Assembly (NCBI GenBank): GCA_937141935.1
Contig: CAKZQS010000016.1
Location: forward strand, 17,201-81,200
DNA from: an uncultured Ectothiorhodospiraceae bacterium
GTDB lineage: Bacteria > Pseudomonadota > Gammaproteobacteria > Nevskiales > Oceanococcaceae
DNA length: 64,000 nt
Direction: 5' to 3'
Shown one piece after another: positions 8,722 to 34,536 of this stretch (positions within the stretch are counted from its first letter, which is position 1; each line of letters starts with the position of its first letter). The notes beneath the pieces were generated by a model, which made no database searches, was not told the DNA's origin, and saw nothing but the letters and a program-made list of their open reading frames with translations. The position numbers and the translations under genes are program-made.

Positions 8722-8741
8722 CCATTCGACGATGGTCGGCC
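8722..8741 (-). promoter_or_regulatory. Shared 20-bp promoter element, acs1 copy
   Basis: On the minus strand the bases are GGCCGACCATCGTCGAATGG. They match most positions of the consensus CTMCNMCSAANGKCKAATRG derived from the other copies, and closely resemble the copy upstream of the response regulator at 13158. It lies 58 bases before the acs1 start and directly abuts the porin-facing copy at 8742. Function as a CrbR/AgmR-type binding site is inference. Confidence 0.5.
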
Positions 8742-8761
8742 CTACGACCAAGGGCTAATAG
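8742..8761 (+). promoter_or_regulatory. Shared 20-bp promoter element, porin-symporter operon copy
   Basis: The bases CTACGACCAAGGGCTAATAG fit the consensus at nearly every position. It points toward the porin start 54 bases downstream. It is placed back to back with the acs1 copy, so one regulator could serve both directions. Confidence 0.6.
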
Positions 8762-8815
8762 ACCCGCTCCGCGAGAAGCCCGAGGCTAGCCCTCAGTTCA
8801 TTGGGGAGAGAATCC

Positions 8816-9952
8816 ATGTTTCGGGCCCAGCACCTTGCTGCATGCACCGCTATGACCGTTCTATTCGCGCCGGCCGCTCACGCGGTGCGCCTGGATGTCG
8901 GGAATACGGCACTGACCATTGGCGGCTATATCAAAATCGACGCCCTCGTTACGAATTACGACGCCCGCCCCAGCGCCTCGCTTGAGCCGTTGGGACGCGA
9001 CTATTACGCCGGCCCGCGCAGCGTGCCTTTGAGTGACGGCGGTGACAGCATCACGCTGCTGGATGTGCATGCGAAGCAGACCCGAACCTGGCTACGCACC
9101 GAAACCACGCTGGAAAACGGGGAGACGCTCGGCGCCTACGTCGAGATGGATTTCCAAAACAGTGCGCAGGGCAACGAGACCATCAGCAACTCCTATGTGC
9201 CGCGGATGCGTCAGGCCTACCTGACCTATGGCGACTGGCTGGTCGGGCAGACCTGGTCCACCTTCCAGAACGTTTCGGCCCTGCCGGAGACGCTGGACTT
9301 CATCGGTCCCACCGAAAGCACGGTTTTCATTCGTCAGCCCATGCTGCGATACACCAGTGGTCCCCTGCAGTTCGCGCTGGAGAATCCCGAGACCCGAATC
9401 GCCGGCGACGCGACCACGGACGACAACGCGATCCCAGACGTGGCGCTGCGTTACACGCTCAAGATGGACTCCATGGATTTCGTTGCCGCCGGTCTGTTGC
9501 GGGCCCTGGAATCCCAGGATCGTGGCGAAGACGGCGTGGACGACACCATCGTTGGTGGCGGCATCAGTCTGTCCGGGCGGATTCCCTTCGGTCGCGACGA
9601 CCTCAAGTTCATGCTGACGGCAGGCTCGGGCCTGGGGCGTTATCTGGGTGTGCTGGCGAACTTCGATGCCGTTGTGGATGACCAGGGCGACCTGGACGCG
9701 GTCGACGTTCTGGCCGGCTATGTGTCCTACCGCCATTTCTGGTCGGACCGCGTACGCAGCACCGTGGTCTACGGCATGTTCTCGGGTGACGGGGACATCG
9801 ACAGCGCTTCGAGTGCGCACGTCAACCTGCTGTATTCGCCCGTACGCAACCTGACGCTTGGCGTTGAACTTATGCAGGCCAGCCGGGAGAACGCCGGCGG
9901 TGCCGAGGGCGATTTCCAGCGACTGCAACTGGCGGCCAAGCTGGCGTTTTAA
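8816..9952 (+). CDS. DcaP-like outer-membrane porin
   Basis: 378 residues. A signal peptide ends near AAHA, followed by a beta-rich barrel with GGYIKIDAL at the start, TLENGETLGAYVEMDF, a WLVGQTWSTF strand and a C-terminal aromatic ending (LAAKLAF), typical of outer-membrane barrels. It resembles the DcaP family of trimeric porins, which pass small carboxylates and other anions. The ATG at 8816 is chosen because GGGGAGAG lies just upstream; an earlier in-frame TTG at 8801 lacks support. It is the first gene of an operon with a DUF4212 subunit and a sodium/solute symporter, which suggests a route for acetate or similar acids across both membranes. Confidence 0.75.
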   Translation: MFRAQHLAACTAMTVLFAPAAHAVRLDVGNTALTIGGYIKIDALVTNYDARPSASLEPLGRDYYAGPRSVPLSDGGDSITLLDVHAKQTRTWLRTETTLENGETLGAYVEMDFQNSAQGNETISNSYVPRMRQAYLTYGDWLVGQTWSTFQNVSALPETLDFIGPTESTVFIRQPMLRYTSGPLQFALENPETRIAGDATTDDNAIPDVALRYTLKMDSMDFVAAGLLRALESQDRGEDGVDDTIVGGGISLSGRIPFGRDDLKFMLTAGSGLGRYLGVLANFDAVVDDQGDLDAVDVLAGYVSYRHFWSDRVRSTVVYGMFSGDGDIDSASSAHVNLLYSPVRNLTLGVELMQASRENAGGAEGDFQRLQLAAKLAF

Positions 9953-9967
9953 GACTTGGGAGGGACC

Positions 9968-9990
9968 GCCGGCAGCGGAGCGCTGCCGGC
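9968..9990 (+). other. Perfect hairpin between porin and DUF4212 genes
   Basis: A 10-bp perfect stem (GCCGGCAGCG and CGCTGCCGGC) with a 3-base loop and no following T run. It could protect the upstream porin mRNA from 3' exonucleases or partly attenuate transcription, giving more porin than symporter. Confidence 0.5.
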
Positions 9991-10027
9991 CGACGACCCT
10001 CCTCCAGGCGTTATTGAGGAGACGATG

Positions 10028-10288
10028 ATGTCGACAAAGCACGACGCAGCCGGCTACTGGGCTGCCAACCTGAAACTGCTGGGCAAACTACTCGCCGTAT
10101 GGCTCCTGGTGTCCTACGGCTTCGGAATCTGGTTTGTGGATTTGCTCAACGAGGTGTCCATCGGCGGCATCAAGCTGGGCTTTTTCTTTGCCCAGCAAGG
10201 GGCGATTTATGTGTTTGTGGCGCTGATCTTTATCTACGTGCGGCAGATGAACAAGCTGGATCGCCAGTTCGGCGTGGACGAGGAGTAA
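10028..10288 (+). CDS. DUF4212 small subunit of sodium/solute symporter
   Basis: 86 residues with two hydrophobic segments (about 18-38 and 48-70) separated by a short loop. This is the usual layout of DUF4212 proteins, which are found directly upstream of SSS-family symporters and are thought to be accessory subunits. GAGGAG lies just before two consecutive ATG codons (10025 and 10028); the second gives better spacing. Only 3 bases separate it from the symporter gene, so the two are co-translated. Confidence 0.85.
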   Translation: MSTKHDAAGYWAANLKLLGKLLAVWLLVSYGFGIWFVDLLNEVSIGGIKLGFFFAQQGAIYVFVALIFIYVRQMNKLDRQFGVDEE

Positions 10289-10291
10289 GGC

Positions 10292-12073: not shown

Positions 12074-12095
12074 TCCTCATTGGACGCTGCGCAAG

Positions 12096-12123
12096 AAAGA
12101 CCCCCGTTCGGGGGTCTTTTTTT
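12096..12123 (+). terminator. Rho-independent terminator of the porin-symporter operon
   Basis: The stem AAAGACCCCC / GGGGGTCTTT with a short TTCG-type loop is followed by a T run. It begins 22 bases after the symporter stop. Confidence 0.9.
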
Positions 12124-12128
12124 CTGCG

Positions 12129-12527
12129 TTGCGTGCGGCGTGGCTGCCCGTGGCATGCAGTGTCGCGCTGCTCGGTTGTGCTTCGAGCACACCGCCGCTC
12201 CCACCCGAGGCTTCGACTTTGCAGCTTTGCAGCAAGTCCTCGCGCGCCAGCTGCGCACAGCCGGAGCCACTGCCGGCGCTGACCTGCGCCTACCGTGTGC
12301 GTCGCTACGCCGCCCAGGTCATAGACGCCAACGAGGATGTCGTGAACCGCGCCGTGGCGATCTACGTTCCGGACTTGCGCCGACGTTTCGACGTTTCGCT
12401 TGACGGGCCTGGCGTTCGCCGCGGCATCACGCCACAGGGTTTTGGCCTGGCTGCCGCCGCCTACGTCGCGGTCTCGCAGGATGAGGGCTGCGCGCCGTAC
12501 ATTAACGACATCGAGTTCTTGGAGTAG
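12129..12527 (+). CDS. Small lipoprotein, function unknown
   Basis: 132 residues if translation starts at the TTG at 12129, which gives a short signal peptide with lipobox LLGC (Cys at about residue 17). Five further cysteines follow. No family was recognised. An ATG at 12030 in the same frame would overlap the symporter gene and run through the terminator, so it is not preferred. No clear ribosome site precedes the TTG, and the start remains open. The next gene starts 11 bases downstream. Confidence 0.55.
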   Translation: MRAAWLPVACSVALLGCASSTPPLPPEASTLQLCSKSSRASCAQPEPLPALTCAYRVRRYAAQVIDANEDVVNRAVAIYVPDLRRRFDVSLDGPGVRRGITPQGFGLAAAAYVAVSQDEGCAPYINDIEFLE

Positions 12528-12538
12528 GAGCAACCCCT

Positions 12539-13045: not shown

Positions 13046-13055
13046 GCGCCGACGC

Positions 13056-13075
13056 CTACGACCAATGGTGAATGG
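13056..13075 (+). promoter_or_regulatory. Shared 20-bp promoter element, response-regulator copy
   Basis: The bases CTACGACCAATGGTGAATGG lie 82 bases before the start of the LuxR-type regulator gene, in the same orientation. The position suggests that this regulator is itself in the regulon. Confidence 0.55.
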
Positions 13076-13157: not shown

Positions 13158-13817
13158 ATGCGGGTTGCCTTGGACGCGAGAACTGTCATCGTCGTTGCCG
13201 ACGACCACCCCTTGTTCCGGGGGGCGCTGGCGCGCGCGGTTCGTGACTGCTTCCCGCGCAGCGTGCTTCACGAAACCGGCACGCTGGAGGGGGTGCGGCA
13301 ACTGCTGCGCGGACATGCCCCGGTTGACCTGCTGATCATGGAGCTCAACCTGCCGGATGCCCATGGCATGCAGTCGCTGCAGGCGCTGCGGCAGGCCCAC
13401 CCCGAACTGTCCATCATGGTCGTTTCCGGCGCTGGAGAGCCTGGCGCCCAGGCGGCGGTGCTGCGCGCCGGCGCGGCGGCCTACGTGCCCAAAACCTGTC
13501 CCCCCGCGCTGCTGCGTGAGGCCTTGCGCGCTGTGGGGTCTGGCGAAGTGTGGGCCCGTGCGGACGCCGCCCCAAGTAGCGCCGACAGGGCGCCTACGCA
13601 GTCCGGCCTCGCCCAGCTCACTCCACAGCAGCGCCGCGTGCTGGAGCTGCTGTCGCGCGGCCTGCTGAACAAGCAGATCGCCGCGGAACTCGAGGTGGCC
13701 GAGGCCACCGTGAAGTCGCATGTCACCGCCATCATGCGCAAGCTCGGCGCTCATAACCGCACCCAGGCCGTCGTGATCGCCAGAACCCTGGCGGACGCGC
13801 CTCAGCCCGGTGAATGA
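13158..13817 (+). CDS. LuxR/NarL-type response regulator with Glu at the phosphorylation site
   Basis: 219 residues: receiver domain (1-125) and LuxR-type helix-turn-helix (about 150-200, LTPQQRRVLELLSRGLLNKQ). It is a clear paralogue of CrbR at 43063-43722 and resembles AgmR/ErbR-type regulators. The acidic pair Asp15-Asp16 and the conserved Lys in YVPKTCPP are kept, but the phospho-acceptor position reads IMELNLP with Glu62 (codon GAG at 13341) where CrbR has LLDLKMP. Glu often mimics phospho-Asp, so this regulator may be active without a kinase. No kinase gene is adjacent. Confidence 0.85.
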   Translation: MRVALDARTVIVVADDHPLFRGALARAVRDCFPRSVLHETGTLEGVRQLLRGHAPVDLLIMELNLPDAHGMQSLQALRQAHPELSIMVVSGAGEPGAQAAVLRAGAAAYVPKTCPPALLREALRAVGSGEVWARADAAPSSADRAPTQSGLAQLTPQQRRVLELLSRGLLNKQIAAELEVAEATVKSHVTAIMRKLGAHNRTQAVVIARTLADAPQPGE

Positions 13818-13848
13818 GCCGGCGTTCAGACCCTACGGAGAAGCCCTG

Positions 13849-19500: not shown

Positions 19501-19798
19501 ACAGGGCGTGGGCGAGAAAATCCGAGGGCGGTGGCTCGGGGAAGTGCGCCTCAAAACCCAGCGGTGTCGACAAGGCTTGGTTGGGGTCGGCGCTGGCCTT
19601 GCCTTGCAAGGAGGGGTAGCGCGAGCCCAGCCAGAAGTTGGCGCAGATGGCGGCGATGACGGCCGACGTCAGGGGGATGCGCGGGTCCAGGCGACGCAGC
19701 TTGCTCAGCACGGGAAAAACAATCGGAACAGCATGTCGCGTTCTACGCCGCCACCTAGTCCGGCGCAACCCGACTTTGGTATAGCGGTCGATGCCCAT
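16520..19798 (-). CDS. Permease fused to FG-GAP beta-propeller and UnbV domain
   Basis: 1092 residues. The first 420 residues are a polytopic permease with about eight to ten membrane helices and a motif GVCVNCAAPIAQG (Cys154, Cys157) typical of the predicted permease family PF03773 (ArsP/DUF318-like). From about 500 to 1000 there are repeated calcium-loop motifs (DVDQDGWPDLA, DLDGDGALDLF, DFDRDGDLDIV, DLDNDGWLDLY) of FG-GAP repeats, and the last 80 residues resemble ASPIC/UnbV. The fusion puts a large propeller on the outer face of a transporter. The substrate is unknown. The start is uncertain because the N terminus is basic and the divergent gene begins only 21 bases away. Confidence 0.8.
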   Translation of the reverse strand: MGIDRYTKVGLRRTRWRRRTRHAVPIVFPVLSKLRRLDPRIPLTSAVIAAICANFWLGSRYPSLQGKASADPNQALSTPLGFEAHFPEPPPSDFLAHALWTALEWAITNRQGMTFGLLLAAGMLTLLPLLPRPRGGRFAGAMQGAIVGAPLGVCVNCAAPIAQGMLVSGSRLEVALATLFSSPSFNVIVVSMLFTLFPWHLVALKLGASALVVLLAVPLLAKLGERPGWRRPPRREPRLPGMGLFRWLDALIARAGEGPQATDKAFGGGFLQALGWVAMTYPRNLLRIVVLALPLMLLAGLLGAILVELLPWDRLTALAHLDAWWQMLGVVVLASAFGTLLPVPIAFDIVICSVLWSAGVPAWVLAPLLVTLGIYSVYPWAILGTTLSWKLASVAGLCVILAGLISGAGAALLQRWHEIDQAHAAQAILNQYAAVPEPTRALPEGHPAGDLQGLAPPLQAPELLRQGPDWQLQHQAFQAPATPVASARFERIDGPQLGLTRLPLPRPYQGMEPTVMHLGALAGGDVDQDGWPDLAVGSYFGVFLYRNLGGRFEQQQIDFPAMRDWIIGDVALVDLDGDGALDLFFGTWMHGSHILFNREGRFSESAHVALERDSETVVTAVAFADFDRDGDLDIVTGGSTFAAWFYYPELARNFVWRNQGAGQFRREALPGPEGDTLSLLFHDLDGDGWEDLLVGNDFDEPDRVFLNREGNLHAATVADSPLPWSTTTTMSFDAGDLNNDGAMELYISQIAMGRMNELPGKLADPWRSCGIYEDVADRARCDKIVGFQTAVVRARNVERVQLCRELDDPQQVRDCAVTAYHWNRIIVRQPSLGASHAEIMRDCARIPADFETMQDLCAALAASELDYNQAARNFPQELPQVARTNLLFSPQQGQYRDVTAQWRSGFGGWSWNAQFGDLDNDGWLDLYIAQGSRLRASSPYSPVYHNQSGRGFADVTRAWGLEDHRPTGAYLYMDFDRDGDLDLLSYPFLLSPVLWRNHGGGKGLSIRLEDRTAANAEAIGARITLHREAGPPQTRVLKASGGYQSHRSVEAHFGLGEASAAKALEVHWPDGQHLRIDGPLPPGLYRLQRHAP

Positions 19799-23020: not shown

Positions 23021-23121
23021 CCTAGTCGCCCCATCTCCGGTGCCGGCCGGGTTTCGACGAAAGTCGCAGGGGGCGCGGCAGGCGGCTGCAGGCACCCATG
23101 CGGCGTCGCCCGGGGTCTGCT

Positions 23122-23141
23122 GTCCCACTTAGGTCTAATTG
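23122..23141 (+). promoter_or_regulatory. Possible weak copy of the shared promoter element
   Basis: The bases GTCCCACTTAGGTCTAATTG keep the GTCTAAT core and most of the left half of the consensus, with four mismatches. It lies 138 bases before the AbiTii-like gene in the same orientation. Weak on its own. Confidence 0.3.
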
Positions 23142-23279: not shown

Positions 23280-23939
23280 ATGAGCGCGACCCTGCCCATG
23301 CTCCGTCGACGCCTGGGCGACGCGTCCGCGTCGGTGTCACAGCAGTTGGCCGAGGCGCGGATCCTGGCCGTTCGCGCGCGCTGTCGCGCGATCAAAAACT
23401 GGCTTGGCGACGAGATTCATGGCTATGCCGAGGGCGCCTGCCTGCCGGCATGGCGCCAAGGGCTTGCAGGCCAGGTGGTGATTCGCTCGCCGCATTATGG
23501 CTGGGTGTTGGCGCCCCTCGAGGCCCATGAGCACCGGCGTCTGAGCCTTAGCAACCTGTATGCGCCCGTGCATGAAATCGAGGCCCGGCTCGCCGACGCT
23601 TACCGTCGGGATACCGTCCGCCACCCCTTGCCGCCCGCGCGCTTGGCGGCGATTCGGCAGGCCGGAAATCTTTCGGTCGAAGCCGCAGTGACGGTGCCGG
23701 CGCAGGCTTACTACCACGTGCTCCAGCAGTTGCGCGCCTCGCTGGCCGCCTGGCTGGATGCGGTGCACGCCGCCGCGCCGGGGGTCTGGCAAGCATCCGG
23801 CCCCGAGTCTGGGACCGTCGACGAGCCTGCGCGCTACTGGCAGGCACCCGCGCAGGACGTGCTTGAGTCGCTGCAGACCGAGTCCCGCGGCGAGCCGCGG
23901 CGGCGGCCACTGTTCCCGCGGCTGCGCCCCAGCGCCTGA
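23280..23939 (+). CDS. AbiTii-domain-like protein
   Basis: 219 residues, no signal peptide, no membrane segment. The pattern WLGDEIHGYAEGACLPAWR, followed by a beta segment with GWVLAPLE and then a helix (APVHEIEARLA), matches the layout of the AbiTii domain, which is found in abortive-infection-like and other defence-associated proteins. The C-terminal half has no recognised fold. An internal ATG at 23298 is also possible. It stands alone between the polytopic membrane protein and the LVIVD array, so no defence partner is visible. Confidence 0.5.
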   Translation: MSATLPMLRRRLGDASASVSQQLAEARILAVRARCRAIKNWLGDEIHGYAEGACLPAWRQGLAGQVVIRSPHYGWVLAPLEAHEHRRLSLSNLYAPVHEIEARLADAYRRDTVRHPLPPARLAAIRQAGNLSVEAAVTVPAQAYYHVLQQLRASLAAWLDAVHAAAPGVWQASGPESGTVDEPARYWQAPAQDVLESLQTESRGEPRRRPLFPRLRPSA

Positions 23940-24035: not shown

Positions 24036-25493
24036 TCAGTCGAAGGGCCACACCCCATTGGTGAAGCGCAGCACCATGAAGCCGTTGTCCTGGCAGGTGG
24101 TCCACAGCTCGCCGCGCTCGGGGATCAGGCGGACTTGGGCGGTGCACCAGTCGCTCGTCAGGTTCACGTCCACGTTGCCGCTGTCTGCCAGGTTGGTCGT
24201 CCGCTCAAGGAGGCCGTTGACATGTTCCGAGCTGGTCAGCTCGGCATTGCGGCCCACCTGGGCGGGCGGGTTGTAGTACGCAATTTCGCGGGGCGCGTGT
24301 GGGTCGCGGATGTCGAAGACCCGCACGCCCGACTGGAAGTAGCCGCAAGCCAGGGCGGTGGGGTTCTCGAAGCGATCAACGTTGCAGTAGTGCGCCTGGT
24401 AGCCAAAGATGCCGTTGCCTTGCGTGTCGGACATCTGAATGTCGGCATGCTCAGGCATGTGCACCTCCAGCTTGAGCTTGGAGATCACGCGCGGCTGCGT
24501 TTCGTCGGAAATATCGATGATCCGTGCCGCACCCGCCGGCCCGCGCAGACCGCCGACGCCGCCCTCGTCGACAAACACGATGTAGGGCTTGCCGTCGTAG
24601 TAAACCGGGATCGTGTGTTGGGCGGTGCTGCCGTCCTCCCAGCAAACTTCGCCCAGCACTGGCATCGCCGGGTCGGGCTCGCGGGCCTGCACAGCGGAGG
24701 TATCAAAGATCACCAGCCCGTTGCCGCAGCTGGCGCCCACGCCATACATGCGGTTGCCGTCCTCGCGCACCGACAAGCCGTGCCCGGAGCCCTGGGTCTG
24801 GGTCTGCAGGATGGGTTGCGGCAGCACGGTATTGCTGGTGTCAATCGCGCTGTGGACCAGGCCCACGTAGTAGGTGTTGCCGTCAGGCGCCCATTCGCCC
24901 TCGTGCCCGATGGGCGCCTGCGAGGGCGTACTGGAGGCCAATTGCGGCCGTTCGCAGCCAGCGGTGAGATCGTAGATGTCAAAGTACACCGGGCCGCCAA
25001 CGTTCCAGCCGGCGTCGGCGCCAAGCAGGCCGCGCCGCTCGTTGACCTTCAGCGACTCCCAGGGGTCCAGCATCGCCGGGGTTTGCAGCGCCGTGCTGCG
25101 TACCGGATTGGTGGGGTCGGAGGCATCGATGACCTGCACGCCGGCCGCACCGGCGAATGCAGTGCCGTAGTAGGCGCAATCGTCATACCAGGCCATTTGC
25201 CAGCTCGCGCCCTGGCCCTGGTGCTGGCCTACAAGTTCCAGGTTGCAGGCATAGCCCTGCTGGGAGCGGCCGCTCATGCGGTCCTCAAGCGACACGCGAC
25301 CCTGGATGTCCGTCTCGGGCGAGGAGCCGGGGCCGCAGTCTGCACGTGCGACCGGCCCTTCGAAGACGCCGTCGACCGTGTTGCGACTGCCGGCGGAGGC
25401 GGCCGCCGCAAGATTGGCGTCCCGGCCTCCGCTGCAGGCCGTCAGGGCGCCGCCCAACAGCACCAGGCCCGTGCAAAGAAGTGTGTGTCGCAT
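24036..25493 (-). CDS. LVIVD-repeat lipoprotein 1
   Basis: 485 residues. Lipoprotein signal with lipobox LTAC (Cys near 20). The mature part carries LVIVD-type beta-propeller blades: GVQVIDASDPTNP, GLVIFDTS, ARIIDISDETQPRV, GVRVFDIRDPHAPREI. Eight or more cysteines are conserved among the five paralogues (DCGPGS, CNLELVGQ, DDCAYYGT, VCWEDGS, HYCNVDR, LACGYFQSG, DWCTAQVR, TTCQDNGF). The protein likely sits on the outer membrane or in the periplasm. The ATG at 25493 has GGGGAGA upstream; an in-frame TTG at 25505 overlaps that site and is rejected. Function of the family is not established. Confidence 0.9.
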   Translation of the reverse strand: MRHTLLCTGLVLLGGALTACSGGRDANLAAAASAGSRNTVDGVFEGPVARADCGPGSSPETDIQGRVSLEDRMSGRSQQGYACNLELVGQHQGQGASWQMAWYDDCAYYGTAFAGAAGVQVIDASDPTNPVRSTALQTPAMLDPWESLKVNERRGLLGADAGWNVGGPVYFDIYDLTAGCERPQLASSTPSQAPIGHEGEWAPDGNTYYVGLVHSAIDTSNTVLPQPILQTQTQGSGHGLSVREDGNRMYGVGASCGNGLVIFDTSAVQAREPDPAMPVLGEVCWEDGSTAQHTIPVYYDGKPYIVFVDEGGVGGLRGPAGAARIIDISDETQPRVISKLKLEVHMPEHADIQMSDTQGNGIFGYQAHYCNVDRFENPTALACGYFQSGVRVFDIRDPHAPREIAYYNPPAQVGRNAELTSSEHVNGLLERTTNLADSGNVDVNLTSDWCTAQVRLIPERGELWTTCQDNGFMVLRFTNGVWPFD

Positions 25494-25569: not shown

Positions 25570-25589
25570 CTATTAGACATTCGGGGGAG
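25570..25589 (-). promoter_or_regulatory. Shared 20-bp promoter element, LVIVD1 copy
   Basis: Minus-strand bases CTCCCCCGAATGTCTAATAG, 76 bases before the LVIVD1 start. It differs from the LVIVD4 copy by a single base. Confidence 0.6.
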
Positions 25590-25595
25590 GGCGGC

Positions 25596-27095
25596 TCAAT
25601 TGAGCGGCCACACGCCGTTGGTGAAGCGCAGCACCATGAAGCCGTTGTCCTGGCAGGTGGTCCACAGCTCGCCGCGCTCGGGAATCAGGCGCACCTGGGC
25701 GGTGCACCAGTCGGCGGTGAGGTTGTTTTCGACGCCGGCCGGACCGTCGCCGTTGGAGCGTGCCGCCGTGCCGTTGGCGTGTTCGGAACTGCTCAGTTCG
25801 GCGTTGCGGCCCACCTGGGCTGGCGGGTTGTAATAAGCGATTTCGGCCGGGCGCAGCGGGTCGCGAATGTCGAACACGCGAATCCCCGACTGGAAAAAAC
25901 CGCAGGCCAATGCCGTGGGATTGTCCTGCCGGTCGACGCTGCAGTAGTGCGCTTGGTAGCCGAAAATCCCGTTGCCTTGAACATCGCTGGCCTGGATGTC
26001 GGCGTGCTCGGGCATATGGATTTCCAGCTTGATCTTGGAGACAACACGGGGCTGGGTTTCGTCGCTGATGTCGATAATGCGCGCTGAGCCCGCCGGAGCG
26101 ACGGGGTCGATGCTGCCAAGACCGGTGCCATCGCCGCCACCTTCATCGACGAAGACGACGTAGGGCTTCCCATCGTAGTGGACCAGAATGGTGTGCTGCG
26201 CCGTGCTGCCGTCTGCCCAGCAGACGCTGCCGATCACAGGCATCGCGGGGTTGAGTTCCCTGTTCTGTACCGCGGTGGTGTCGTAAATCACCAGGCCATT
26301 CAGGGCCTCTGCGGAGCATGCGTACATGTTCACCGCATACATGCGGCTCCCATCGGCATTCAGCGACAGCCCGTGCAAGGAGCCGATGGCTTCCACCTGC
26401 GCGATGAGCTGGGGATTGTTGGGGTCGGAGACGTCAATGGCACTCTGGGTGGTGCCGCCGACGTAGTAGGTCTTGCCGTCGGGCGCCCAGTCGCCTTCAT
26501 GGCCGGCAGGAAATGCCGTCGGCGTGCTGGACAGCAGATTCGGCTGCGCGCAATCACCGTTCAGATCGTAAATATCGAAAAACAGCGGCCCGGAGCCATT
26601 CCAGCCGGCTCCGCCGCTCAGCAGACCGCGTTTTTCGTGCACTTTCAGCGATTCCCACGGATCGAGCATGGCCGGCGAGCGCAGGGCGCCGGCATGCCGC
26701 GGGTTGGTCGGGTCCGATACATCGATGACTTGCACGCCGGCTTGCCCGGGAAAGCTGGTGCCGTAGTAGGCGCAGTCCTCATGCCAGGCGTGCTGCCAAC
26801 TGGCGCCCCGCCCCTGATGCTGGCCGACCAGCTCCAGGTTGCAGGAATAGCCCTGCTGCGAGCGGCCGCTGGTGCGGTCCTCGAGCGAGACCCGGCCCTG
26901 GATGTCGGTTTCGGGCATGGAGCCGGGGCCGCAGTCGGCGCGAGGAACCGGGCCTTCAAATACGGTATCCGGGTTGTCTAGTTCGCTGCGCGAGGGCGCG
27001 TTGGTGTCCATACGACCGCTCTGGCAAGCGTTCAGGAACAGAGCAGTGCTTGCCACCAGCAGCAGCACCTCCTTTTCGTACATTTTCATTAGCAT
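25596..27095 (-). CDS. LVIVD-repeat lipoprotein 2
   Basis: 499 residues from the ATG at 27095; in-frame ATGs at 27089 and 27083 are equally plausible. Lipobox LNAC. Same domain layout and cysteine set as LVIVD1, with blades GVQVIDVSDPTNP, ARIIDISDETQPRV and GIRVFDIRDPLRP, and the C-terminal TTCQDNGFMVLRFTNGVWP. Only 8 bases separate it from the LVIVD3 stop, so it is the second gene of a two-gene transcript. It lacks a promoter element of its own. Confidence 0.88.
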   Translation of the reverse strand: MLMKMYEKEVLLLVASTALFLNACQSGRMDTNAPSRSELDNPDTVFEGPVPRADCGPGSMPETDIQGRVSLEDRTSGRSQQGYSCNLELVGQHQGRGASWQHAWHEDCAYYGTSFPGQAGVQVIDVSDPTNPRHAGALRSPAMLDPWESLKVHEKRGLLSGGAGWNGSGPLFFDIYDLNGDCAQPNLLSSTPTAFPAGHEGDWAPDGKTYYVGGTTQSAIDVSDPNNPQLIAQVEAIGSLHGLSLNADGSRMYAVNMYACSAEALNGLVIYDTTAVQNRELNPAMPVIGSVCWADGSTAQHTILVHYDGKPYVVFVDEGGGDGTGLGSIDPVAPAGSARIIDISDETQPRVVSKIKLEIHMPEHADIQASDVQGNGIFGYQAHYCSVDRQDNPTALACGFFQSGIRVFDIRDPLRPAEIAYYNPPAQVGRNAELSSSEHANGTAARSNGDGPAGVENNLTADWCTAQVRLIPERGELWTTCQDNGFMVLRFTNGVWPLN

Positions 27096-27103: not shown

Positions 27104-28531
27104 TTATTCGAGCGGCCACACGCCGTTGGTGAAGCGCAGCACCATGAAGCCGTTGTCCTGGCAGGTGGTCCAGATCTCGCCGCGTTCGCGCACGAAGCGG
27201 ACCTGAGCGCTGCACCAGTCGGCGGTGAGGTCGTTGCCGCCGCCGACCTGCTGCGCGGCGCCGTTGGCGTGCTCGGAGCTGGGCAGTTCGGCGGCTCGGC
27301 CCACTTGCGCCGGCGGGTTGTAATAGGCGATCTCGCGGGGGGCGAGCGGGTTGCGAATGTCGAAGACGCGGATGCCGGACTGAAAATACCCGCAGGCCAG
27401 CGCGGTGGGGTTCTGCTTGCGGTCGACGCCGCAGTAGTGCCCCTCGTAGCCGAAGCTGCCGTTGTTGGCGGTGTCGACGCTGCGGGCGTCGGCCTGGTCG
27501 GGCATGTGGATCTCGAGCTTGAGCTTGGAGACCACGCGCGGCTGCGTCTCGTCGCTGATGTCGATCAGACGGGCCGCCCCGGTGCCGCCCTCGTCGACGA
27601 ACACGATGAAAGGCTTGCCGTCGTAGAACACGGGAATCGTGTGCTGCGCCAGCGTGCCATCGTCCCAGCACACGCGGCCGATCTCGGGCATCGAGGGCAG
27701 GGGTATACGGTTCTGGATTTCGGTGGTGTCGAAGATCACCAGGCCATTGCAGGTGCCGGCGCCGGTACCGATCGACACGGCATACATGCGCGTGCCCGCC
27801 TCGTTCAGGGACAGGCCGTGCAGCGACCCGACGACGTCGGCTTGCGGGATCAGGCGCGGTTGGTTGGGGTCGGTCACGTCGATGGCGCTGTGCGCCACGC
27901 CGACGTAGTAGGTCTTGCCGTCGGGTGCCCACTCGCCTTCGTGGCCAACGGGGACCGCCGATGGCGTACTCGCCAGCAGGTCGGGCTGGGCGCAGTCGCC
28001 GTTCAGGTCATAAACATCGAAGAACGCGGGGCCGGCGCCGTTCCAGGCCGTATCGGCCCCCAGCAGCCCGCGCCGCTCGTTGACCTTCAGCGACTCCCAG
28101 GGGTCGAGCATCGCGGGCGAGCGCAAAGCGCCGACGCCCTGAGGATTCGTCGGGTCGGACACATCGACCACCTGCGTGCCGGCCTGGCCGGGGAAGGCGG
28201 TGCCGTAGTAGGCGCAGTCCTCGTACCAGGCCATCTGCCAGCTGGCGCCCTGGCCCTGGTGCTGGCCTACGAGTTCCAGGTTGCACCAGTAGCCTTCCTG
28301 CGAGCGGCCGCTGGTGCGGTCCTCGATGGAAACACGGCCCTGGATATCGGTTTCGGGCTGCGCGCCGGGGCCGCACTGCGCGCGTGCGACCGGGCCCTCG
28401 AAAACGCGGGAGTCATCGCTACGCGGCGTGCTGATGGTGCCGCCGCCGGCGTCGCCTTCCCGCCCGCCGCTGCAGGCGCCCAAGGCAAAGGTGAGCATCA
28501 GCATGCAGCCGGCTCGTTTGATTGCTCGCAT
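27104..28531 (-). CDS. LVIVD-repeat lipoprotein 3
   Basis: 475 residues. Lipobox LGAC. Blades include TQVVDVSDPTNPQG, GLVIFDTTEIQN, ARLIDISDETQPRV and GIRVFDIRNPLAPREI. The ATG at 28531 has AGGAGAACATC upstream. It is the first gene of the LVIVD3-LVIVD2 pair and carries the shared promoter element 77 bases before its start, almost the same distance as LVIVD1. It is shorter than its paralogues mainly in the linker after the lipobox and in the central loops. Confidence 0.9.
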   Translation of the reverse strand: MRAIKRAGCMLMLTFALGACSGGREGDAGGGTISTPRSDDSRVFEGPVARAQCGPGAQPETDIQGRVSIEDRTSGRSQEGYWCNLELVGQHQGQGASWQMAWYEDCAYYGTAFPGQAGTQVVDVSDPTNPQGVGALRSPAMLDPWESLKVNERRGLLGADTAWNGAGPAFFDVYDLNGDCAQPDLLASTPSAVPVGHEGEWAPDGKTYYVGVAHSAIDVTDPNQPRLIPQADVVGSLHGLSLNEAGTRMYAVSIGTGAGTCNGLVIFDTTEIQNRIPLPSMPEIGRVCWDDGTLAQHTIPVFYDGKPFIVFVDEGGTGAARLIDISDETQPRVVSKLKLEIHMPDQADARSVDTANNGSFGYEGHYCGVDRKQNPTALACGYFQSGIRVFDIRNPLAPREIAYYNPPAQVGRAAELPSSEHANGAAQQVGGGNDLTADWCSAQVRFVRERGEIWTTCQDNGFMVLRFTNGVWPLE

Positions 28532-28608: not shown

Positions 28609-28628
28609 CTATTAGACGATCGGAGGAG
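28609..28628 (-). promoter_or_regulatory. Shared 20-bp promoter element, LVIVD3-LVIVD2 copy
   Basis: Minus-strand bases CTCCTCCGATCGTCTAATAG, 77 bases before the LVIVD3 start. Confidence 0.6.
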
Positions 28629-28650: not shown

Positions 28651-30123
28651 TCAGTCGACGAAGGGCCACACGCCGTTGGTGAAGCGCAGCACCATGAAGC
28701 CGTTGTCTTGGCAGGTGGTCCACAGTTCGCCGCGCTCGGGGATCAGACGCACTTGGGCCGAGCACCAGTCGGCCGTCAGGCTGGTGGTGCCGCCGGCCGA
28801 GCCGACGAGTCCGTTGGCGTGCTGGGAGCCGGGGATGGCGGTACGGTTGCCTTCCTGCGCGGGCGGGTTGAAGTAGGCGATTTCACGCGGGGCGTAGGGG
28901 TCGCGCACGTCGAAGACGCGAATGCCCGATTGGAAGTAGCCGCAGGCCACGGTGGTCGTATTGGTCACGCGATCGACGCCGCAGTAATGACCCTCGTAGC
29001 CGAAAACGCCCGTATTGAACAAGTCTGCGGTGCGCAGCTCCTCACGCTCGGGCATGTGGATTTCGAGTTTCAGCTTCGAGGCGACAACCGGCTGCGTTTC
29101 ATCGCGGATGTCGATGAGCCGGGCGGCGCCCAGTCCTGCTTCGTCAACGAACAGGATGAAGGGATTGCCACCGATGGTGATCGGAACGGTGTGCTGAGCG
29201 GCGCTGCCGTCGGTCCAGCACACCTCACCCAATACTTCGGCACCCGCCAGCGTCTCGCGATCTTGGACGTGGGAGGTATCAACGATGCGCAGGCCGTTGC
29301 CGACACCGTCGCACTCCCGGTTTGAAGCCAGGTAGGCGCGGGTGCCGTCCTCGCTCATGCTTAGCCCATGGGTCTGGCGATTGATGTTGCTGATTGGCGT
29401 CGGGGCGCTCGGCTCCGTCACGTCTATGGCTACGGTGATTGGAGTTCTGGTGGAAGACCCGTAGTAGATCGTACCGTCCGGTGCCCAGTTGCCCTCGTGT
29501 CCGACGGGCAATTGAACCGGGGTGCTTGCCATCAACTCAGGTTGCGTGCAGTCGCTCGCGACGTCGTACACATCAAAGTACACGGGGCCCTGGCCGTTCC
29601 ACCCCGCGACGGCGCCGAGCAGGCCACGCCGCTCGTTAACCTTCAAGGACTCCCATGGGTCGAGCATCGCACCGGTCGTCAAATTGACGGTTCTGACGGG
29701 ATTTGTCGGATCGCTGACGTCGATGACCTGCGTACCGGGAACGGTATGCGCAGCGATGCCGCCCAACTGGGTGTCGTAGTAGGCGCAATCGTCATACCAG
29801 GCCATTTGCCAGCTCGCCCCCTCACCCTGGAACTGCCCGGTGAGTTCCAGATTGCACCAGTAACCCTGCTGCGAACGGCCGCTGGTGCGGTCCTCGATGG
29901 CCACACGACCCTGGATGTCGGTTTCCGGTTGCGAGCCGGGCCCGCACTGGGCACGCGGCACGGGGCCTTCGAATACAGTCGCTGCGCCACCGCTGTCATC
30001 CGCGGTTCGCAGGTCCGGTGTACCGCGCTCGGTGATGTCAGCGCGACCGCCGCCGCAGGCGGCCAGCAGCAAGGTCAGGCTTGTGGCTGCCAGTATCGGC
30101 AGCGGGGGTGCATGGCTAGGCAT
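28651..30123 (-). CDS. LVIVD-repeat lipoprotein 4
   Basis: 490 residues. Lipobox LAAC followed by GGGR. Blades include TQVIDVSDPTNPVR, GLRIVDTSHVQD, ARLIDIRDETQPVV and GIRVFDVRDPYAPREI. The ATG at 30123 has AGAGGAGAG at good spacing; a longer frame up to 30234 is rejected. It shares the cysteine pattern and C terminus of the other four. Its promoter element lies farther away (142 bases) than in LVIVD1 and LVIVD3, leaving room for a longer leader. Confidence 0.9.
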   Translation of the reverse strand: MPSHAPPLPILAATSLTLLLAACGGGRADITERGTPDLRTADDSGGAATVFEGPVPRAQCGPGSQPETDIQGRVAIEDRTSGRSQQGYWCNLELTGQFQGEGASWQMAWYDDCAYYDTQLGGIAAHTVPGTQVIDVSDPTNPVRTVNLTTGAMLDPWESLKVNERRGLLGAVAGWNGQGPVYFDVYDVASDCTQPELMASTPVQLPVGHEGNWAPDGTIYYGSSTRTPITVAIDVTEPSAPTPISNINRQTHGLSMSEDGTRAYLASNRECDGVGNGLRIVDTSHVQDRETLAGAEVLGEVCWTDGSAAQHTVPITIGGNPFILFVDEAGLGAARLIDIRDETQPVVASKLKLEIHMPEREELRTADLFNTGVFGYEGHYCGVDRVTNTTTVACGYFQSGIRVFDVRDPYAPREIAYFNPPAQEGNRTAIPGSQHANGLVGSAGGTTSLTADWCSAQVRLIPERGELWTTCQDNGFMVLRFTNGVWPFVD

Positions 30124-30265: not shown

Positions 30266-30285
30266 CCATTAGACATTCGGGGGAG
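30266..30285 (-). promoter_or_regulatory. Shared 20-bp promoter element, LVIVD4 copy
   Basis: Minus-strand bases CTCCCCCGAATGTCTAATGG, 142 bases before the LVIVD4 start, and just beyond the end of the SGNH hydrolase gene. Confidence 0.6.
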
Positions 30286-30299
30286 CTTCGGCGAATCGC

Positions 30300-32822
30300 T
30301 TAGCGGCAGATCAGGCTCAGGTCCACGGCATCAGCCATTGCGGCGTAGCCGGCGTCGTTCGGGTGCAGGCCGTCACCGCTGTCGTACTGCGCGTCCATTT
30401 GTTCGGCGTCGTCCGGCGCCGCCACGGCCTGCTCGAAATCGATGAAGCCATCGAACTGCGGGGAATTTTCGCGTGTCCAGCAGTTGATGGCGTTGCGAGC
30501 CGCCACGTTGTCGGGTGACCCGTGCAGGCCGGGGTTACTGGCCGGTGTCTGGGGGCTGACCAGCAGCCGCATCCCTTGGGCATGCACGCGGTTGCGCAGC
30601 AACTCCAGGCCTTGGACGACGGCATCCGCGCTCGCGCTGTTGAAGCCGAGATCGTTGGTGCCCTCCAGCAGGATCACGTCGCGCACCTGCGGCCACAGGA
30701 ACACGTCGCCATCAATGCGTCGCTGGGCCGAATCGCTGGGAAAGAACTCGCGCGTATCGGTCAGAATTTTGTTCGCGCCAATGCCGGCGTTCAGCACCAC
30801 GACGTGTTCGCAGCCCGGCGTCTGTGCCAGCCGGCGCTGCAGGATATCCGGCCAGCGCTGGTTAGCATTGACGGTCGAGGACGAACCGTCGGTAATCGAA
30901 TCGCCTAGCGCCACCACGGTCCGAACCGGCTGCGGGCTGATGACGTCGATGCCCTGCAGGTAGAACCAGCTTGTGGTCGGCACGGCGAAGGGCAGTCCTT
31001 GCGTGTCGCCGGTGTGGTCGCCACCCGGGGCGATGAAAGAACGCTGGTGCGCCTCGACATGCCCGGTCACGGCGGGCACGGCGGCCGGCACATGGATGCT
31101 GACAGCCAGGTCGGTGAAGGCGTCGACCTCGAAGTCCGCCACCGCGTCGCTGATGGCATCGGCGCCGGGCGGCAGGGTGATCTGCGTATCCCCGCCGTTG
31201 AAGGTGACCGGCCGCAGGCTGTCGGCATCCACGGCCGCGCCATCGGCCGCCCGCGCAATGGTGATGGGGCCCAGAGTCAGGTCCGCGCTGCCGTAGCGGT
31301 TCGACAGCCGCACGCGCGGCGCGCTGCCGCTGGCGTGCGGGTGCACGATCATGCGCAGTGTCTGCTGACCACTGACGGCGCCGGGCGCGGGCATCATGCT
31401 GGTGCTCCAGGCGGTAGCCGGCACGGGGCCCGCGTTGACAGGCTGTGCGTCTTCCTTTGGTGCCGTGCGGCCGCGCAGCCATTGCAGGTCGATGGCCGCG
31501 GCCATCGCGGCGTAGCCGGCATCGTTCGGGTGCAGGCCGTCGCCGCTGTCGAAATCGGGATTCAGCACACCGGGCCGGGCGGGGTCTTCCATCACCCGAT
31601 CCCAGTCCACGAGCTGGTCATAGATGCCGCTGCTGCGGATGTATGCGTTGATCTGCTGCCGCTTGGCCTCCTGTTCGGCCAATGCACCGTAGCTTGGGAT
31701 AAAGAATGTGGTGGCCGGCATGAGGGTGCTGCCGATCAGGTGGATGCCTGCCGCGCGGATGCGCGTAGCCACCTGCGTGATGCCAGCGATGATTTCCTCG
31801 GCGCTGCGGTACGGGGACAGCCCCAGGTCGTTAATGCCCTCCATGAAGATCACGTCGGTGACACCGCGGCGGGCGAGTACGTCCCAGTTCATGCGCGCCA
31901 AGGCGTTGCGGCCTTGGCCCGGCAGCGCACCGTCCGTCAGCACGCGGTTGCCGGAGATGCCCTTGTTAACGACGATCATCTGCTCGGCGGCAGGCAGTTC
32001 AGCGCGGATTCGCCGTTGCAACACGTCCGGGTAGCGGCGGTTGGCATCGGTGGTCGAGTTCAGCCCTTCGGTGATCGAGTCGCCGAAGGCCACGACGACG
32101 TTGCGCTGCTGCGGGGCGAAGCCGTCGATGCCCGCCACGAAGTGCCAGCGCTCGGTGGTCTGCGTGTAGGCCGCGCCGGCTTCATCGGCTGCGTGATCAC
32201 CCGATTCGGTGATGAACGACGTGGCCTGGGCAAAATCATGCCCGGTCGGCAGGCCCGTCGCCTGTGGCAGATGCAGGCTGACGGCCAGTGCCTCGAAGGC
32301 CTGCACCGGAAACTCCACAACGTCGCTGACCACCTGCGTGCCCGGCGCCAGCGTGATCTGCCCCTGCCCACCGAAGAGCAGCGGTACGTTGCTCCCCGGC
32401 TGCAGAGCCGCGCCCTCGGCTTGGCGTCCGAGCCAAGCGCTGCTGACAACCAGCGGGCGCTCACCAAAGCGGTTGCTCAGGTGCACGCGCAGCCGCTCAC
32501 CCTCCCAGTGCGTAGTGACGATGTTGCGAATGGTCTGGTCGTCGAAGCCTGTGCCGTCAAGCGGGGCGATACCGCTGCTCCAGATAGGCGCCCAGTGGGC
32601 CAGCCGGTTGCGCTCGCTGTCCGCACCTTGCGGTGGCACCGCGCAGGCTGCGGCTCCGACCGGTGGTGTCGGCACCGGGGCCTGCGTTGGGGCGCCGGAG
32701 GGGGACGGCTGGGGTGACTCGGGGGCGTCGCCGCCCGCCGCAGGGCGGCCGCCCGAACCGCAGGCGGCAAGCAGCGCACTGAACAGCAGAGGCGACAGGA
32801 AGGCGAGGGCACGTTGGGGCAT
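30300..32822 (-). CDS. Lipoprotein with two tandem SGNH/GDSL hydrolase domains
   Basis: 840 residues. Lipobox LAAC, a Pro-rich linker, then two copies of a beta-rich accessory domain plus an SGNH catalytic domain. Copy 1 has GDSITEG (Ser249), EGINDLG and DGLHPNDAGYAAM; copy 2 has GDSITDG (Ser642), EGTNDLG and the same DGLHPNDAGYAAM. All SGNH catalytic residues (Ser, Asn, Asp, His) appear intact in both, so both sites could be active. SGNH lipoproteins of this kind are esterases or deacetylases acting on lipids or polysaccharides outside the cytoplasm. It lies inside the LVIVD array in the same orientation and has no promoter element of the shared type. Confidence 0.85.
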   Translation of the reverse strand: MPQRALAFLSPLLFSALLAACGSGGRPAAGGDAPESPQPSPSGAPTQAPVPTPPVGAAACAVPPQGADSERNRLAHWAPIWSSGIAPLDGTGFDDQTIRNIVTTHWEGERLRVHLSNRFGERPLVVSSAWLGRQAEGAALQPGSNVPLLFGGQGQITLAPGTQVVSDVVEFPVQAFEALAVSLHLPQATGLPTGHDFAQATSFITESGDHAADEAGAAYTQTTERWHFVAGIDGFAPQQRNVVVAFGDSITEGLNSTTDANRRYPDVLQRRIRAELPAAEQMIVVNKGISGNRVLTDGALPGQGRNALARMNWDVLARRGVTDVIFMEGINDLGLSPYRSAEEIIAGITQVATRIRAAGIHLIGSTLMPATTFFIPSYGALAEQEAKRQQINAYIRSSGIYDQLVDWDRVMEDPARPGVLNPDFDSGDGLHPNDAGYAAMAAAIDLQWLRGRTAPKEDAQPVNAGPVPATAWSTSMMPAPGAVSGQQTLRMIVHPHASGSAPRVRLSNRYGSADLTLGPITIARAADGAAVDADSLRPVTFNGGDTQITLPPGADAISDAVADFEVDAFTDLAVSIHVPAAVPAVTGHVEAHQRSFIAPGGDHTGDTQGLPFAVPTTSWFYLQGIDVISPQPVRTVVALGDSITDGSSSTVNANQRWPDILQRRLAQTPGCEHVVVLNAGIGANKILTDTREFFPSDSAQRRIDGDVFLWPQVRDVILLEGTNDLGFNSASADAVVQGLELLRNRVHAQGMRLLVSPQTPASNPGLHGSPDNVAARNAINCWTRENSPQFDGFIDFEQAVAAPDDAEQMDAQYDSGDGLHPNDAGYAAMADAVDLSLICR

Positions 32823-32846
32823 GAGAGATCAGTACGCGGACGGGTC

Positions 32847-32871
32847 AAAAAAAGGCGCCCCACGGGGCGCC
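32847..32871 (-). terminator. Rho-independent terminator after LVIVD gene 5
   Basis: Read on the minus strand, the stem GGCGCCCC / GGGGCGCC is followed by seven T. It separates LVIVD5 from the SGNH gene downstream, so the SGNH gene needs its own promoter or read-through. Confidence 0.9.
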
Positions 32872-32918
32872 TGCGGACAATAGCGGCCGTGCCCGCCGGA
32901 GCGGGCGCGCGAGCGGCG

Positions 32919-34415
32919 TTAGTCGCTGTCGTTAAACGGCCAGACGTTGTCTGCGAACTGGAGAATCATGAAACCGTTGTCCTGGCAGGTTCCCCAAAGT
33001 TCGCCCCGTTCACGGACGAAGCGAATTTGCGCGCTGCACCAGTCGGCGGTCATTTGCACACCCTGGCCGAGGCCACCCAGATCGCCCGCTGCATGCTGCG
33101 AGCCGGACAGCTGGTCCTGCTTGCCCACCTGCGCCGGCGGGTTGTAATAGGCGATCTCGCGCGGGAAGTAGGGGTCACGAATATCGAAGACGCGAATCCC
33201 GGAGTTGAAGTAGCCGCAGGCCAGCGCCTGGGCGTTCTCCGGGTCATCTGCCGTGCAGTAATGGCTGTCGTAGCCGAACAGAACCTGGCCGGGGTAATCC
33301 GCCAGCACGGTGGCGCAGTTTGCCGGGTCATGGGTTTCGAGCATCAGCTTGGCTGTGAGCTGGGGGTTGGCCTCATCCGAAATGTCGAAGATGCGCGCAA
33401 AGGCGAAGGGCGAAAGCCCCGACGCACAGTTCTTGCCGGATATGCCGGCTTCATCCACGAACACGATGTGCGGCACGCCGTTGATCTTGATCGGTAGCGT
33501 GTGCTGTGCCGTTTCCGAGCCGTCGAGCCAGTAGGTCTCGCTGATGATCGGGACTTCGGGGTTCTCGGCGCGGTTCTGGATATCCGTGGTGTCGTAGATC
33601 ACCAGTCCGTTGTCGGTGGAGCCAGAAGCCCCCGATGCGAGACCCAGCGAGACGACATAGGCCCGGGTCCCGTCCTCGTTGGTCGACAGCCCATGCGTGC
33701 TGGCCGCAGGCGTCGTCCAGGTCAGCATGTATTCGGGGTTGGTGGGGTCGCTGATGTCGAAGGCACTGTAATCGCCGGTGGACGAGCTGTAATAGGTGAG
33801 GCCGTCCTGGGAAAAGTTGCCCTCGTGGCCCGAGGTGTCCGCCATCTCCGCGTTGGCGAGCAATTCCGGATGCGTGCACCCGCCGGAGAGGTCATACAGG
33901 TCGAACTGATTGCCACCACCGCCTTCCTGGCCATCCACGGCGCCGAGCATCGCGCGCTTCTCGTTCACCTTGAGCGACTCCCAGGGGTCGAGCATCGGCG
34001 TGGTGGTCAGGTAAGCGCTGGGGCGCGGGTTGGTGCGGTTGGAGGCGTCGATCACGACGACGCCCGGCCGCTCGCGCGCGTCGTTGCGCTTGGTGCCGTA
34101 GTAGGCACAGTCGTCGTACCAGGCCATTTGCCAACTGGCGCCGTCCCCCTGCCATTGGCCTACCAGGTCCAGGTTGCAGTTATAGCCTTGCTGCGATCGA
34201 CCGCTGACCCGGTCCACAAGGGGGACCTGGCCCTGCAAACCGGTTTCCACCCGGTCCTCGGCGCGACAGATGGCCTTGCGGACGGGTTTCTCCCAGGGCA
34301 CCTGAACATGATCGTCAAGCGACCGGCTCGGTGCGGTCGGCGTGCTGCCAAGCTCGCGCCCGCCACCGCAGGCCACGGTCAGCACGCACGCAGCGGCGAT
34401 GAAGGGAATTCGCAT
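32919..34415 (-). CDS. LVIVD-repeat lipoprotein 5 (most divergent)
   Basis: 498 residues. Lipobox TVAC followed by GGGRE. Blades include VVVIDASNRTNPRP, GLVIYDTTDIQN, ARIFDISDEANPQL and GIRVFDIRDPYFPREI. It differs more from the other four (CQDNGFMILQFADNVWP at the end, CRAEDRVETGLQG near the start), so it may be the oldest branch. The ATG at 34415 has GGAGA upstream; an in-frame TTG at 34433 is rejected. It ends with its own terminator and carries a shared promoter element 101 bases upstream. Confidence 0.9.
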   Translation of the reverse strand: MRIPFIAAACVLTVACGGGRELGSTPTAPSRSLDDHVQVPWEKPVRKAICRAEDRVETGLQGQVPLVDRVSGRSQQGYNCNLDLVGQWQGDGASWQMAWYDDCAYYGTKRNDARERPGVVVIDASNRTNPRPSAYLTTTPMLDPWESLKVNEKRAMLGAVDGQEGGGGNQFDLYDLSGGCTHPELLANAEMADTSGHEGNFSQDGLTYYSSSTGDYSAFDISDPTNPEYMLTWTTPAASTHGLSTNEDGTRAYVVSLGLASGASGSTDNGLVIYDTTDIQNRAENPEVPIISETYWLDGSETAQHTLPIKINGVPHIVFVDEAGISGKNCASGLSPFAFARIFDISDEANPQLTAKLMLETHDPANCATVLADYPGQVLFGYDSHYCTADDPENAQALACGYFNSGIRVFDIRDPYFPREIAYYNPPAQVGKQDQLSGSQHAAGDLGGLGQGVQMTADWCSAQIRFVRERGELWGTCQDNGFMILQFADNVWPFNDSD

Positions 34416-34516
34416 GTGGGGTCTCCAATCCAAGGTTTTCCGGTCTCCTGCCCCGCAGTCGCCATGGCCTGCGCCGAGGGTGCACAGGCGGTTATAGCAC
34501 CGGGCCGGTGCCCCGC

Positions 34517-34536
34517 CTATACGACTTTTGGTGGAG
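34517..34536 (-). promoter_or_regulatory. Shared 20-bp promoter element, LVIVD5 copy
   Basis: Minus-strand bases CTCCACCAAAAGTCGTATAG, 101 bases before the LVIVD5 start and just after the stop of the DUF4340 gene. Confidence 0.5.

What the first reader, a model, noticed from the sequence alone, without database searches (positions are those of the whole stretch)
8722..34536. A shared 20-bp promoter element links acs1, a porin-symporter operon, a LuxR regulator and four LVIVD promoters
Seven copies fit CTMCNMCSAANGKCKAATRG: 8722-8741(-), 8742-8761(+), 13056-13075(+), 25570-25589(-), 28609-28628(-), 30266-30285(-), 34517-34536(-). Each points at the gene it precedes, 54 to 142 bases before the start codon, and none was seen inside genes. 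CrbR/AgmR/ErbR regulators are known to control acs and alcohol or acetate genes in gammaproteobacteria, and two such regulators are encoded here. The inference is one regulon that joins acetate uptake and activation to LVIVD lipoproteins of unknown role. The element may be a regulator site or part of a core promoter.
Basis: partly seen in the sequence, partly recalled or inferred. Interest (0 to 1): 0.9.

Follow-up and report, generated by a model that had tools for sequence, protein, structure and literature searches.

The report
Acetate-regulator box driving propeller-hydrolase genes
The repeated 20-letter element matches a known DNA switch (the ACTU motif) with which Pseudomonas and related bacteria turn on acetate use, and here it also precedes genes for predicted metal-dependent lipoprotein hydrolases and for a second, likely always-on regulator, so one acetate switch would likely control them all.

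The parts
8722..8741 (-). ACTU/CrbR box of acs1 (17-mer 8724-8740), TACAGT -10 exactly 20 nt after the 20-mer
   Evidence: GCCGACCATCGTCGAAT against published P. fluorescens acs TACTACCATCGTCGAAT
8742..8761 (+). ACTU/CrbR box facing the porin (17-mer 8743-8759), abutting the acs1 box; highest box score in the window; no good -10 at the usual offset
   Evidence: the same GACCAAGGGCTAAT core precedes the porin in G002 and G003
13056..13075 (+). ACTU/CrbR box of the second CrbR-like regulator, TAGCGT -10 at 20 nt
25570..25589 (-). ACTU-like box of LVIVD gene 1, TACCGT -10 at 20 nt; weak left half (rank 139 with published sequences alone)
28609..28628 (-). ACTU/CrbR box of LVIVD genes 3 and 2, TAGGGT -10 at 20 nt
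30266..30285 (-). ACTU-like box of LVIVD gene 4, TAGCGT -10 at 20 nt; weak left half (rank 139 with published sequences alone)
34517..34536 (-). ACTU/CrbR box of LVIVD gene 5 and probably the GDSL gene behind it, TATAAC -10 at 20 nt
39045..39061 (-). further ACTU box, not in the finding: GTCGACCATCGTCTACT, 22 nt, TACAAT (39017-39022); precedes an ABC transporter unit whose ATG I place at 39008
19768..19784 (-). candidate ACTU box before a permease/FG-GAP/ASPIC gene (TAGAAC at 22 nt; gene start uncertain)
23052..23068 (-). candidate ACTU box before the membrane-protein gene 21491-23020; no good -10
23123..23139 (+). candidate ACTU box facing 23280-23939; no good -10
6708..8663 (-). acs1, acetyl-CoA synthetase (acs2 copy 99.58% identical over 1904 bp)
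8816..9952 (+). DcaP-like outer-membrane porin
   Evidence: beside acs in L122, L123, L124 and L126
10292..12073 (+). VC_2705-family sodium/solute symporter, 339 nt behind the porin
13158..13817 (+). CrbR/ErdR-like response regulator with Glu62 in place of the phospho-acceptor Asp
24036..25493 (-). LVIVD gene 1, lipoprotein-like, Sb-PTE-like propeller
25596..27095 (-). LVIVD gene 2, no box of its own, 8 nt behind gene 3
27104..28531 (-). LVIVD gene 3
28651..30123 (-). LVIVD gene 4
30300..32822 (-). lipoprotein-like protein with two GDSL/SGNH esterase stretches (acetylxylan-esterase model far below its cutoff)
32919..34415 (-). LVIVD gene 5
34545..39008 (-). ABC transporter unit: DUF4340, ABC_transp_aux, ABC-2 permease, ATPase
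39673..43077 (+). CrbS-like hybrid kinase: SSF-like N-terminus, PAS, HisKA, HATPase, receiver
43063..43722 (-). CrbR/ErdR-type regulator with the normal phospho-acceptor Asp; between acs2 and crbS as in relatives
43719..45683 (-). acs2; best combined score upstream only 1.5, so no box in front

Best explanation
The shared element matches the ACTU motif, the published CrbR/ErdR activator site, set against a likely sigma-70 promoter, and it likely puts acs1, the porin-symporter unit, a second CrbR-like regulator and the Sb-PTE-like LVIVD lipoprotein genes under one CrbS/CrbR acetate switch. Shown by sequence: the box, its orientation, its fixed distance to a -10-like hexamer at six of seven sites, the confinement of the strict pattern to this locus, and the homology of the LVIVD proteins to the Sphingobium TCM1 phosphotriesterase. 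Inferred: CrbS (39673-43077) phosphorylates CrbR (43063-43722), which binds at about -52 to -36 and recruits polymerase to promoters with poor -35s. The regulator at 13158-13817, made from its own box, would need no phosphate because Glu replaces the acceptor Asp, and its DNA-reading helix is nearly that of CrbR, so it would amplify or prolong the response. The five propeller lipoproteins and the double SGNH protein would hydrolyse esters outside the inner membrane; the porin, the symporter and Acs would take up and activate the acid released.
Against: No binding or expression data. Boxes 25570 and 30266 match ACTU well only in the right half: rank 139 with published sequences alone, combined ranks 15 and 19; 34517 ranks 34. 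The four LVIVD promoters may descend from one ancestor, so they are not four independent gains. None of 29 LVIVD loci from relatives scored 10 or more upstream (background 4% of 176 windows). 8742(+), 23052(-) and 23123(+) lack a good -10. acs2, in the ancestral place beside crbR, has no box; in P. putida, too, ErdR did not shift the acsA-I promoter, which lacks the motif (PMC8402216, passages). Outside this genome the compound pattern is not enriched (48 matches against 90 reversed in 99 relatives by my count of the table). Most of the 45 one-mismatch ACTU cores of the genome lie outside the window. Part of the -10 matrix was typed after seeing one site. The Sb-PTE ligands are recalled, not read. 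The substrate is unknown and a link of these hydrolases to acetate release is inference. A D-to-E change is not always activating (PMC12548384, passages); in Listeria DegU it did not change DNA binding (PMC9263151, passages).
Confidence: 0.7

Rival explanations
1. The LVIVD boxes belong to a different, related NarL/FixJ-type regulator (perhaps the Glu62 paralogue alone) whose site has drifted from ACTU in the left half; the acs1, porin and 13158 boxes are CrbR's.
For: LVIVD boxes share TCCnCC in the left half where the acs1, porin and 13158 boxes have CGACC; two score low on external matrices; a second regulator is encoded here.
Against: The recognition helices of the two regulators are nearly the same (EATVKxHxTAIMRKL); right half and -10 spacing are shared with acs1; the 28609 box scores 11.7 with the external matrix and ranks 13th with published sequences alone.
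Confidence: 0.16
2. The LVIVD boxes are relics of promoter copies that came along with tandem gene duplication and are no longer regulated by acetate.
For: Five tandem paralogues, four of them 53-72% identical to the first; no box at relatives' LVIVD loci by the score used.
Against: Flanks have diverged to 23-28% identity while the box stays at 79% and the -10 offset is kept; acs1 and 13158, not paralogues of LVIVD, share box and offset.
Confidence: 0.08
3. The element is only a core-promoter (-35/-10 or alternative sigma) signature of this organism.
For: It sits at a constant distance from a -10-like hexamer.
Against: A core promoter would occur genome-wide; the compound pattern has 4 matches, all here. 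The 17-mer equals a mutationally tested activator site.
Confidence: 0.03
4. Chance or reader selection of similar 20-mers.
For: The consensus was drawn from the sites; one copy has 3 mismatches; two rank only 139th with published sequences alone.
Against: A matrix built without the window's sites finds five of the seven in its top nine hits, all non-coding; 5 of 7 share one exact -10 offset.
Confidence: 0.03

Closest known systems
ACTU motif / CrbS-CrbR (MxtR-ErdR) acetate regulon of Pseudomonas fluorescens, P. putida and Vibrio
   Same: 17-bp imperfect inverted repeat just upstream of the -35 of a sigma-70 promoter, at acs and a transport gene; SSF-fused hybrid kinase and NarL/FixJ-type regulator encoded nearby.
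   Different: Box-bearing genes here include Sb-PTE-like lipoproteins, an ABC unit and a second CrbR-like regulator; the experimentally supported set in P. fluorescens is acs, actP, pflu0110 and pflu5625. The symporter is VC_2705 family rather than the ActP equivalog.
Sb-PTE / haloalkylphosphorus hydrolase of Sphingobium sp. TCM1 (PDB 5HRM, 5IOJ)
   Same: Propeller fold over 405 aligned residues; the residues aligned with E201, H258, H389, E407 and H475 (recalled ligands) are identical in all five paralogues.
   Different: About 25-30% identity; lipoprotein-like, in a tandem array behind acetate-type boxes; natural substrate unknown.
Aspartate-less receiver regulators with D-to-E (CmrT of C. 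difficile, AtvR)
   Same: Glu at the phospho-acceptor site with other key residues kept; such regulators are inferred to be constitutively active (PMC12548384, passages read).
   Different: A CrbR/ErdR-type NarL/FixJ protein that sits behind the family's own box, near a normal CrbR.

Membership tests
ACTU/CrbR site | 17-bp imperfect inverted repeat like TACTACCATCGTCGAAT | tested here: met
   clear for 8722, 8742, 13056, 28609 and 39045, middling for 34517, weak in the left half for 25570 and 30266
ACTU/CrbR site | lies immediately before the -35 of an RpoD promoter | tested here: met
   TANNNT at 20 nt in 5 of 7, TATAAC in a sixth; not met for 8742(+); no transcription start was mapped
ACTU/CrbR site | CrbR-dependent activation lost on mutation | not testable with these tools
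   needs promoter fusions
CrbS-CrbR two-component system | SLC5/SSF domain fused to PAS, kinase and receiver | tested here: met
   SSF E 9e-8, above gathering, in the N-terminal 526 aa, though SSF was not listed for the whole protein at 1e-3; PAS_7, HisKA, HATPase_c, Response_reg
CrbS-CrbR two-component system | response regulator of receiver plus LuxR-type HTH with phospho-acceptor Asp (43063-43722) | tested here: met
   Response_reg and GerE; Asp kept
CrbS-CrbR two-component system | regulator of ErdR type by NCBIfam NF041830 | tested here: inconclusive
   best family for both regulators, 252.8 and 157.2 bits, but below the curated cutoff of 390 of this exception-type model
CrbR proper (for 13158-13817) | phospho-acceptor Asp | tested here: not met
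   Glu62; the other 119 of 120 aligned proteins have Asp
Sb-PTE family | propeller fold of 5HRM | tested here: met
   model pLDDT 86.9
Sb-PTE family | binuclear-metal ligands E201, H258, H389, E407, H475 (recalled) | tested here: met
   align with E146, H197, H293, E310, H368; identical in 5 paralogues; in 43 homologues four invariant and H293 at 90% or more. That these are the ligands is recall, not a call
Sb-PTE family | phosphotriesterase activity | not testable with these tools
   no assay

The most novel reading that the evidence does not exclude
A two-stage acetate switch: phosphorylated CrbR turns on, through ACTU boxes, both a scavenging set (porin, symporter, Acs, five Sb-PTE-type metallohydrolases, a double SGNH esterase, an ABC unit) and a naturally phospho-mimetic CrbR paralogue behind the same box, which then holds the regulon on without the kinase. 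This would be a self-sustaining latch that couples acetate sensing to breakdown of external esters, and would give the Sb-PTE propeller family a natural physiological context.
Probability: 0.3. Interest if true: 0.7.

Novelty: new variant of a known kind. Interest (0 to 1): 0.5.

Why it matters
The natural role of the Sb-PTE/LVIVD propeller family, known to me mainly for flame-retardant breakdown, is open; a promoter link to acetate sensing offers a testable physiological setting. The Glu62 CrbR paralogue behind its own box would be a natural constitutive variant inside a well-studied two-component system. The case also shows how a published activator box can be used to assign function to lipoproteins called hypothetical.

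Tried and rejected
Core-promoter-only and chance readings were rejected. A conserved LVIVD-ACTU link was looked for and not found: 29 loci from relatives (of 46 match rows in relatives; 0 scored 10 or more; for L087 the stretch scanned lies inside the gene) and 17 named loci, where one, L049, has a good box 220 nt upstream but no good -10. The compound pattern in the own genome plus 99 relatives gave, outside G000, 48 matches against 90 for the reversed control by my count of the table, so that pattern alone does not track the regulon elsewhere. Genome-wide ACTU core with 1 mismatch: 45 matches, reversed control 18. Thirty of these loci, 7 of them in the window, were fetched and scanned, 15 were not; outside the window only L153 reached 16 or more, with a weak -10. 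An idea that 21491-23020 is a fenitrothion-hydrolase-like protein came from memory; among the 12 plasmid records listed its relatives are called hypothetical or are not annotated, Pfam gave nothing, and the 8 papers listed do not hold the term, so it is dropped. In one search gene starts were set by the longest frame, which is wrong for several loci (for example L120, whose box appears), so 12 of 29 is a lower bound. That a box-LVIVD or LVIVD-phosphotriesterase link was not found in print rests only (listings, open-licence library).
Full report
WHAT IS THERE. The seven sites are at the stated places and orientations. Three match the printed pattern exactly; the others have 1, 1, 2 and 3 mismatches. 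Distances to start codons are 54-142 nt. In the own genome (3.57 Mb, 52 contigs) 5 of 5 matches with up to one mismatch and 6 of 8 with up to two are in this window.

WHAT THE ELEMENT IS. The core is the ACTU motif, described in Pseudomonas fluorescens as the imperfect inverted repeat required for CrbR activation and lying at -52 to -36, immediately before the RpoD promoter (PMC5715377; passages and section 16 read). The published acs copy TACTACCATCGTCGAAT compares with GCCGACCATCGTCGAAT at acs1. In the window, TANNNT starts exactly 20 nt after the 20-mer at acs1, 13158 and LVIVD genes 1, 3 and 4 (5 of 7), and LVIVD gene 5 has TATAAC there; the window-wide frequency of TANNNT is 0.00094 per position, though promoter DNA may be richer in A and T. 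With a 17-bp spacer the -35 would be the last three bases of the 20-mer plus the next three, a poor match to TTGACA, as expected of an activated promoter (inference).

INDEPENDENT TESTS. (a) Published ACTU sequences alone rank the seven sites 1, 9, 13, 15, 34, 139 and 139 among all window positions. A matrix from 20 published sequences and 11 relatives' acs boxes, none from the window, joined to a -10 at 21-23 nt, gave 10 hits scoring 12 or more against a mean of 1.8 in 30 Markov-shuffled windows, and 4 scoring 18 or more against 0.1. All 10 hits (9 places) are non-coding in a stretch with 5.0% non-coding DNA by my gene list; for 19768 and 39045 the gene start was chosen after the box was seen. 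(b) GTCKAATRG-N19-21-TANNNT occurs 4 times in the genome, all here, reversed control 0. In the 99 relatives searched with it the matches are scattered and fewer than the reversed control; no other genome of the order has more than 2. (c) Twelve of 29 relatives' acs loci show an ACTU-like box near the start, six with TATGCT exactly 22 nt after the 17-mer (G017, G025, G027, G029, G031, G035). In the same-family genomes G002 and G003 boxes precede both acs and the porin. (d) Among the four LVIVD promoters the box is 79% identical while flanks are 23-28%, which is close to chance, so the box has been kept.

THE LOCUS. porin, acs, crbR and crbS genes keep company in relatives: acs-crbR-crbS in G001-G003, with the porin next to acs in L122, L123, L124 and L126 and the symporter (88% identical over 425 residues) beside the porin in G002. 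The window has acs2-crbR-crbS in that arrangement and a second block of acs1, porin, symporter and a second CrbR-like gene. acs1 and acs2 are 99.58% identical over 1904 bp. acs1 carries the box; in front of acs2 the best combined score is 1.5. Between the blocks, on one strand, lie the ABC unit, LVIVD gene 5, a GDSL lipoprotein and LVIVD genes 4, 3, 2 and 1, with boxes before the ABC unit and LVIVD genes 5, 4, 3 and 1; gene 2 starts 8 nt behind gene 3.

THE SECOND REGULATOR. 13158-13817 has ErdR as its best family (157 bits, curated cutoff 390, not reached; the normal CrbR at 43063 also stays below it with 253) and is 43% identical to that CrbR. It has Glu at the phospho-acceptor position; of the 120 best-listed proteins (of 7758 found) 119 have Asp and it alone has Glu, while the two acidic residues, Ser and Lys of the receiver are 120 of 120. 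Such receivers are known: about 4% of receivers lack the Asp, 26% of those changes are to Glu, and D-to-E often, not always, gives constitutive activity (PMC12548384, passages). Its recognition helix nearly equals that of CrbR. A box sits 82 nt before its start. Hence the likely amplifier or latch, which is inference.

WHAT SPEAKS AGAINST. None of 29 relatives' LVIVD loci has the box by this score. Boxes 25570 and 30266 are poor ACTU sites in the left half. The porin box lacks a -10 at the usual offset, as it does in G002 and G003. Most one-mismatch ACTU cores in the genome lie elsewhere (38 of 45), though of the 23 outside ones scanned only one reached a combined score of 16. Nothing here shows binding, expression or substrate.

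VERDICT. New variant of a known kind.

Noticed in passing
6723-8626 and 43740-45643: Two direct copies of acs, 99.58% identical over 1904 bp, flank about 35 kb; recent duplication or gene conversion, and recombination between them could remove or duplicate the segment.
   Followed up: partly
16520-19798: One frame joins an ArsP_1-type permease domain to FG-GAP repeats and a UnbV_ASPIC domain; a candidate ACTU box lies at its 5' end.
   Followed up: partly
21491-23020: Membrane protein without a Pfam match; relatives on plasmids of haloarchaea, rhizobia, mycobacteria and Variovorax; on a Variovorax plasmid it lies about 2.3 kb from a weak LVIVD-type match.
   Followed up: partly
23280-23939: Protein with a weak AbiTii-domain match, with a possible ACTU box facing it.
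   Followed up: no
L049, 220 nt upstream of the LVIVD match: A betaproteobacterial MAG has a strong ACTU-like site TTAGACCTTCGTCTACT upstream of an LVIVD gene, without a good -10.
   Followed up: partly
L180 5798 and 5919: In the same-genus genome G001 two further ACTU-like sites lie about 5 kb upstream of acs.
   Followed up: no
30300-32822: Lipoprotein-like protein with two tandem GDSL/SGNH esterase stretches between LVIVD genes.
   Followed up: no
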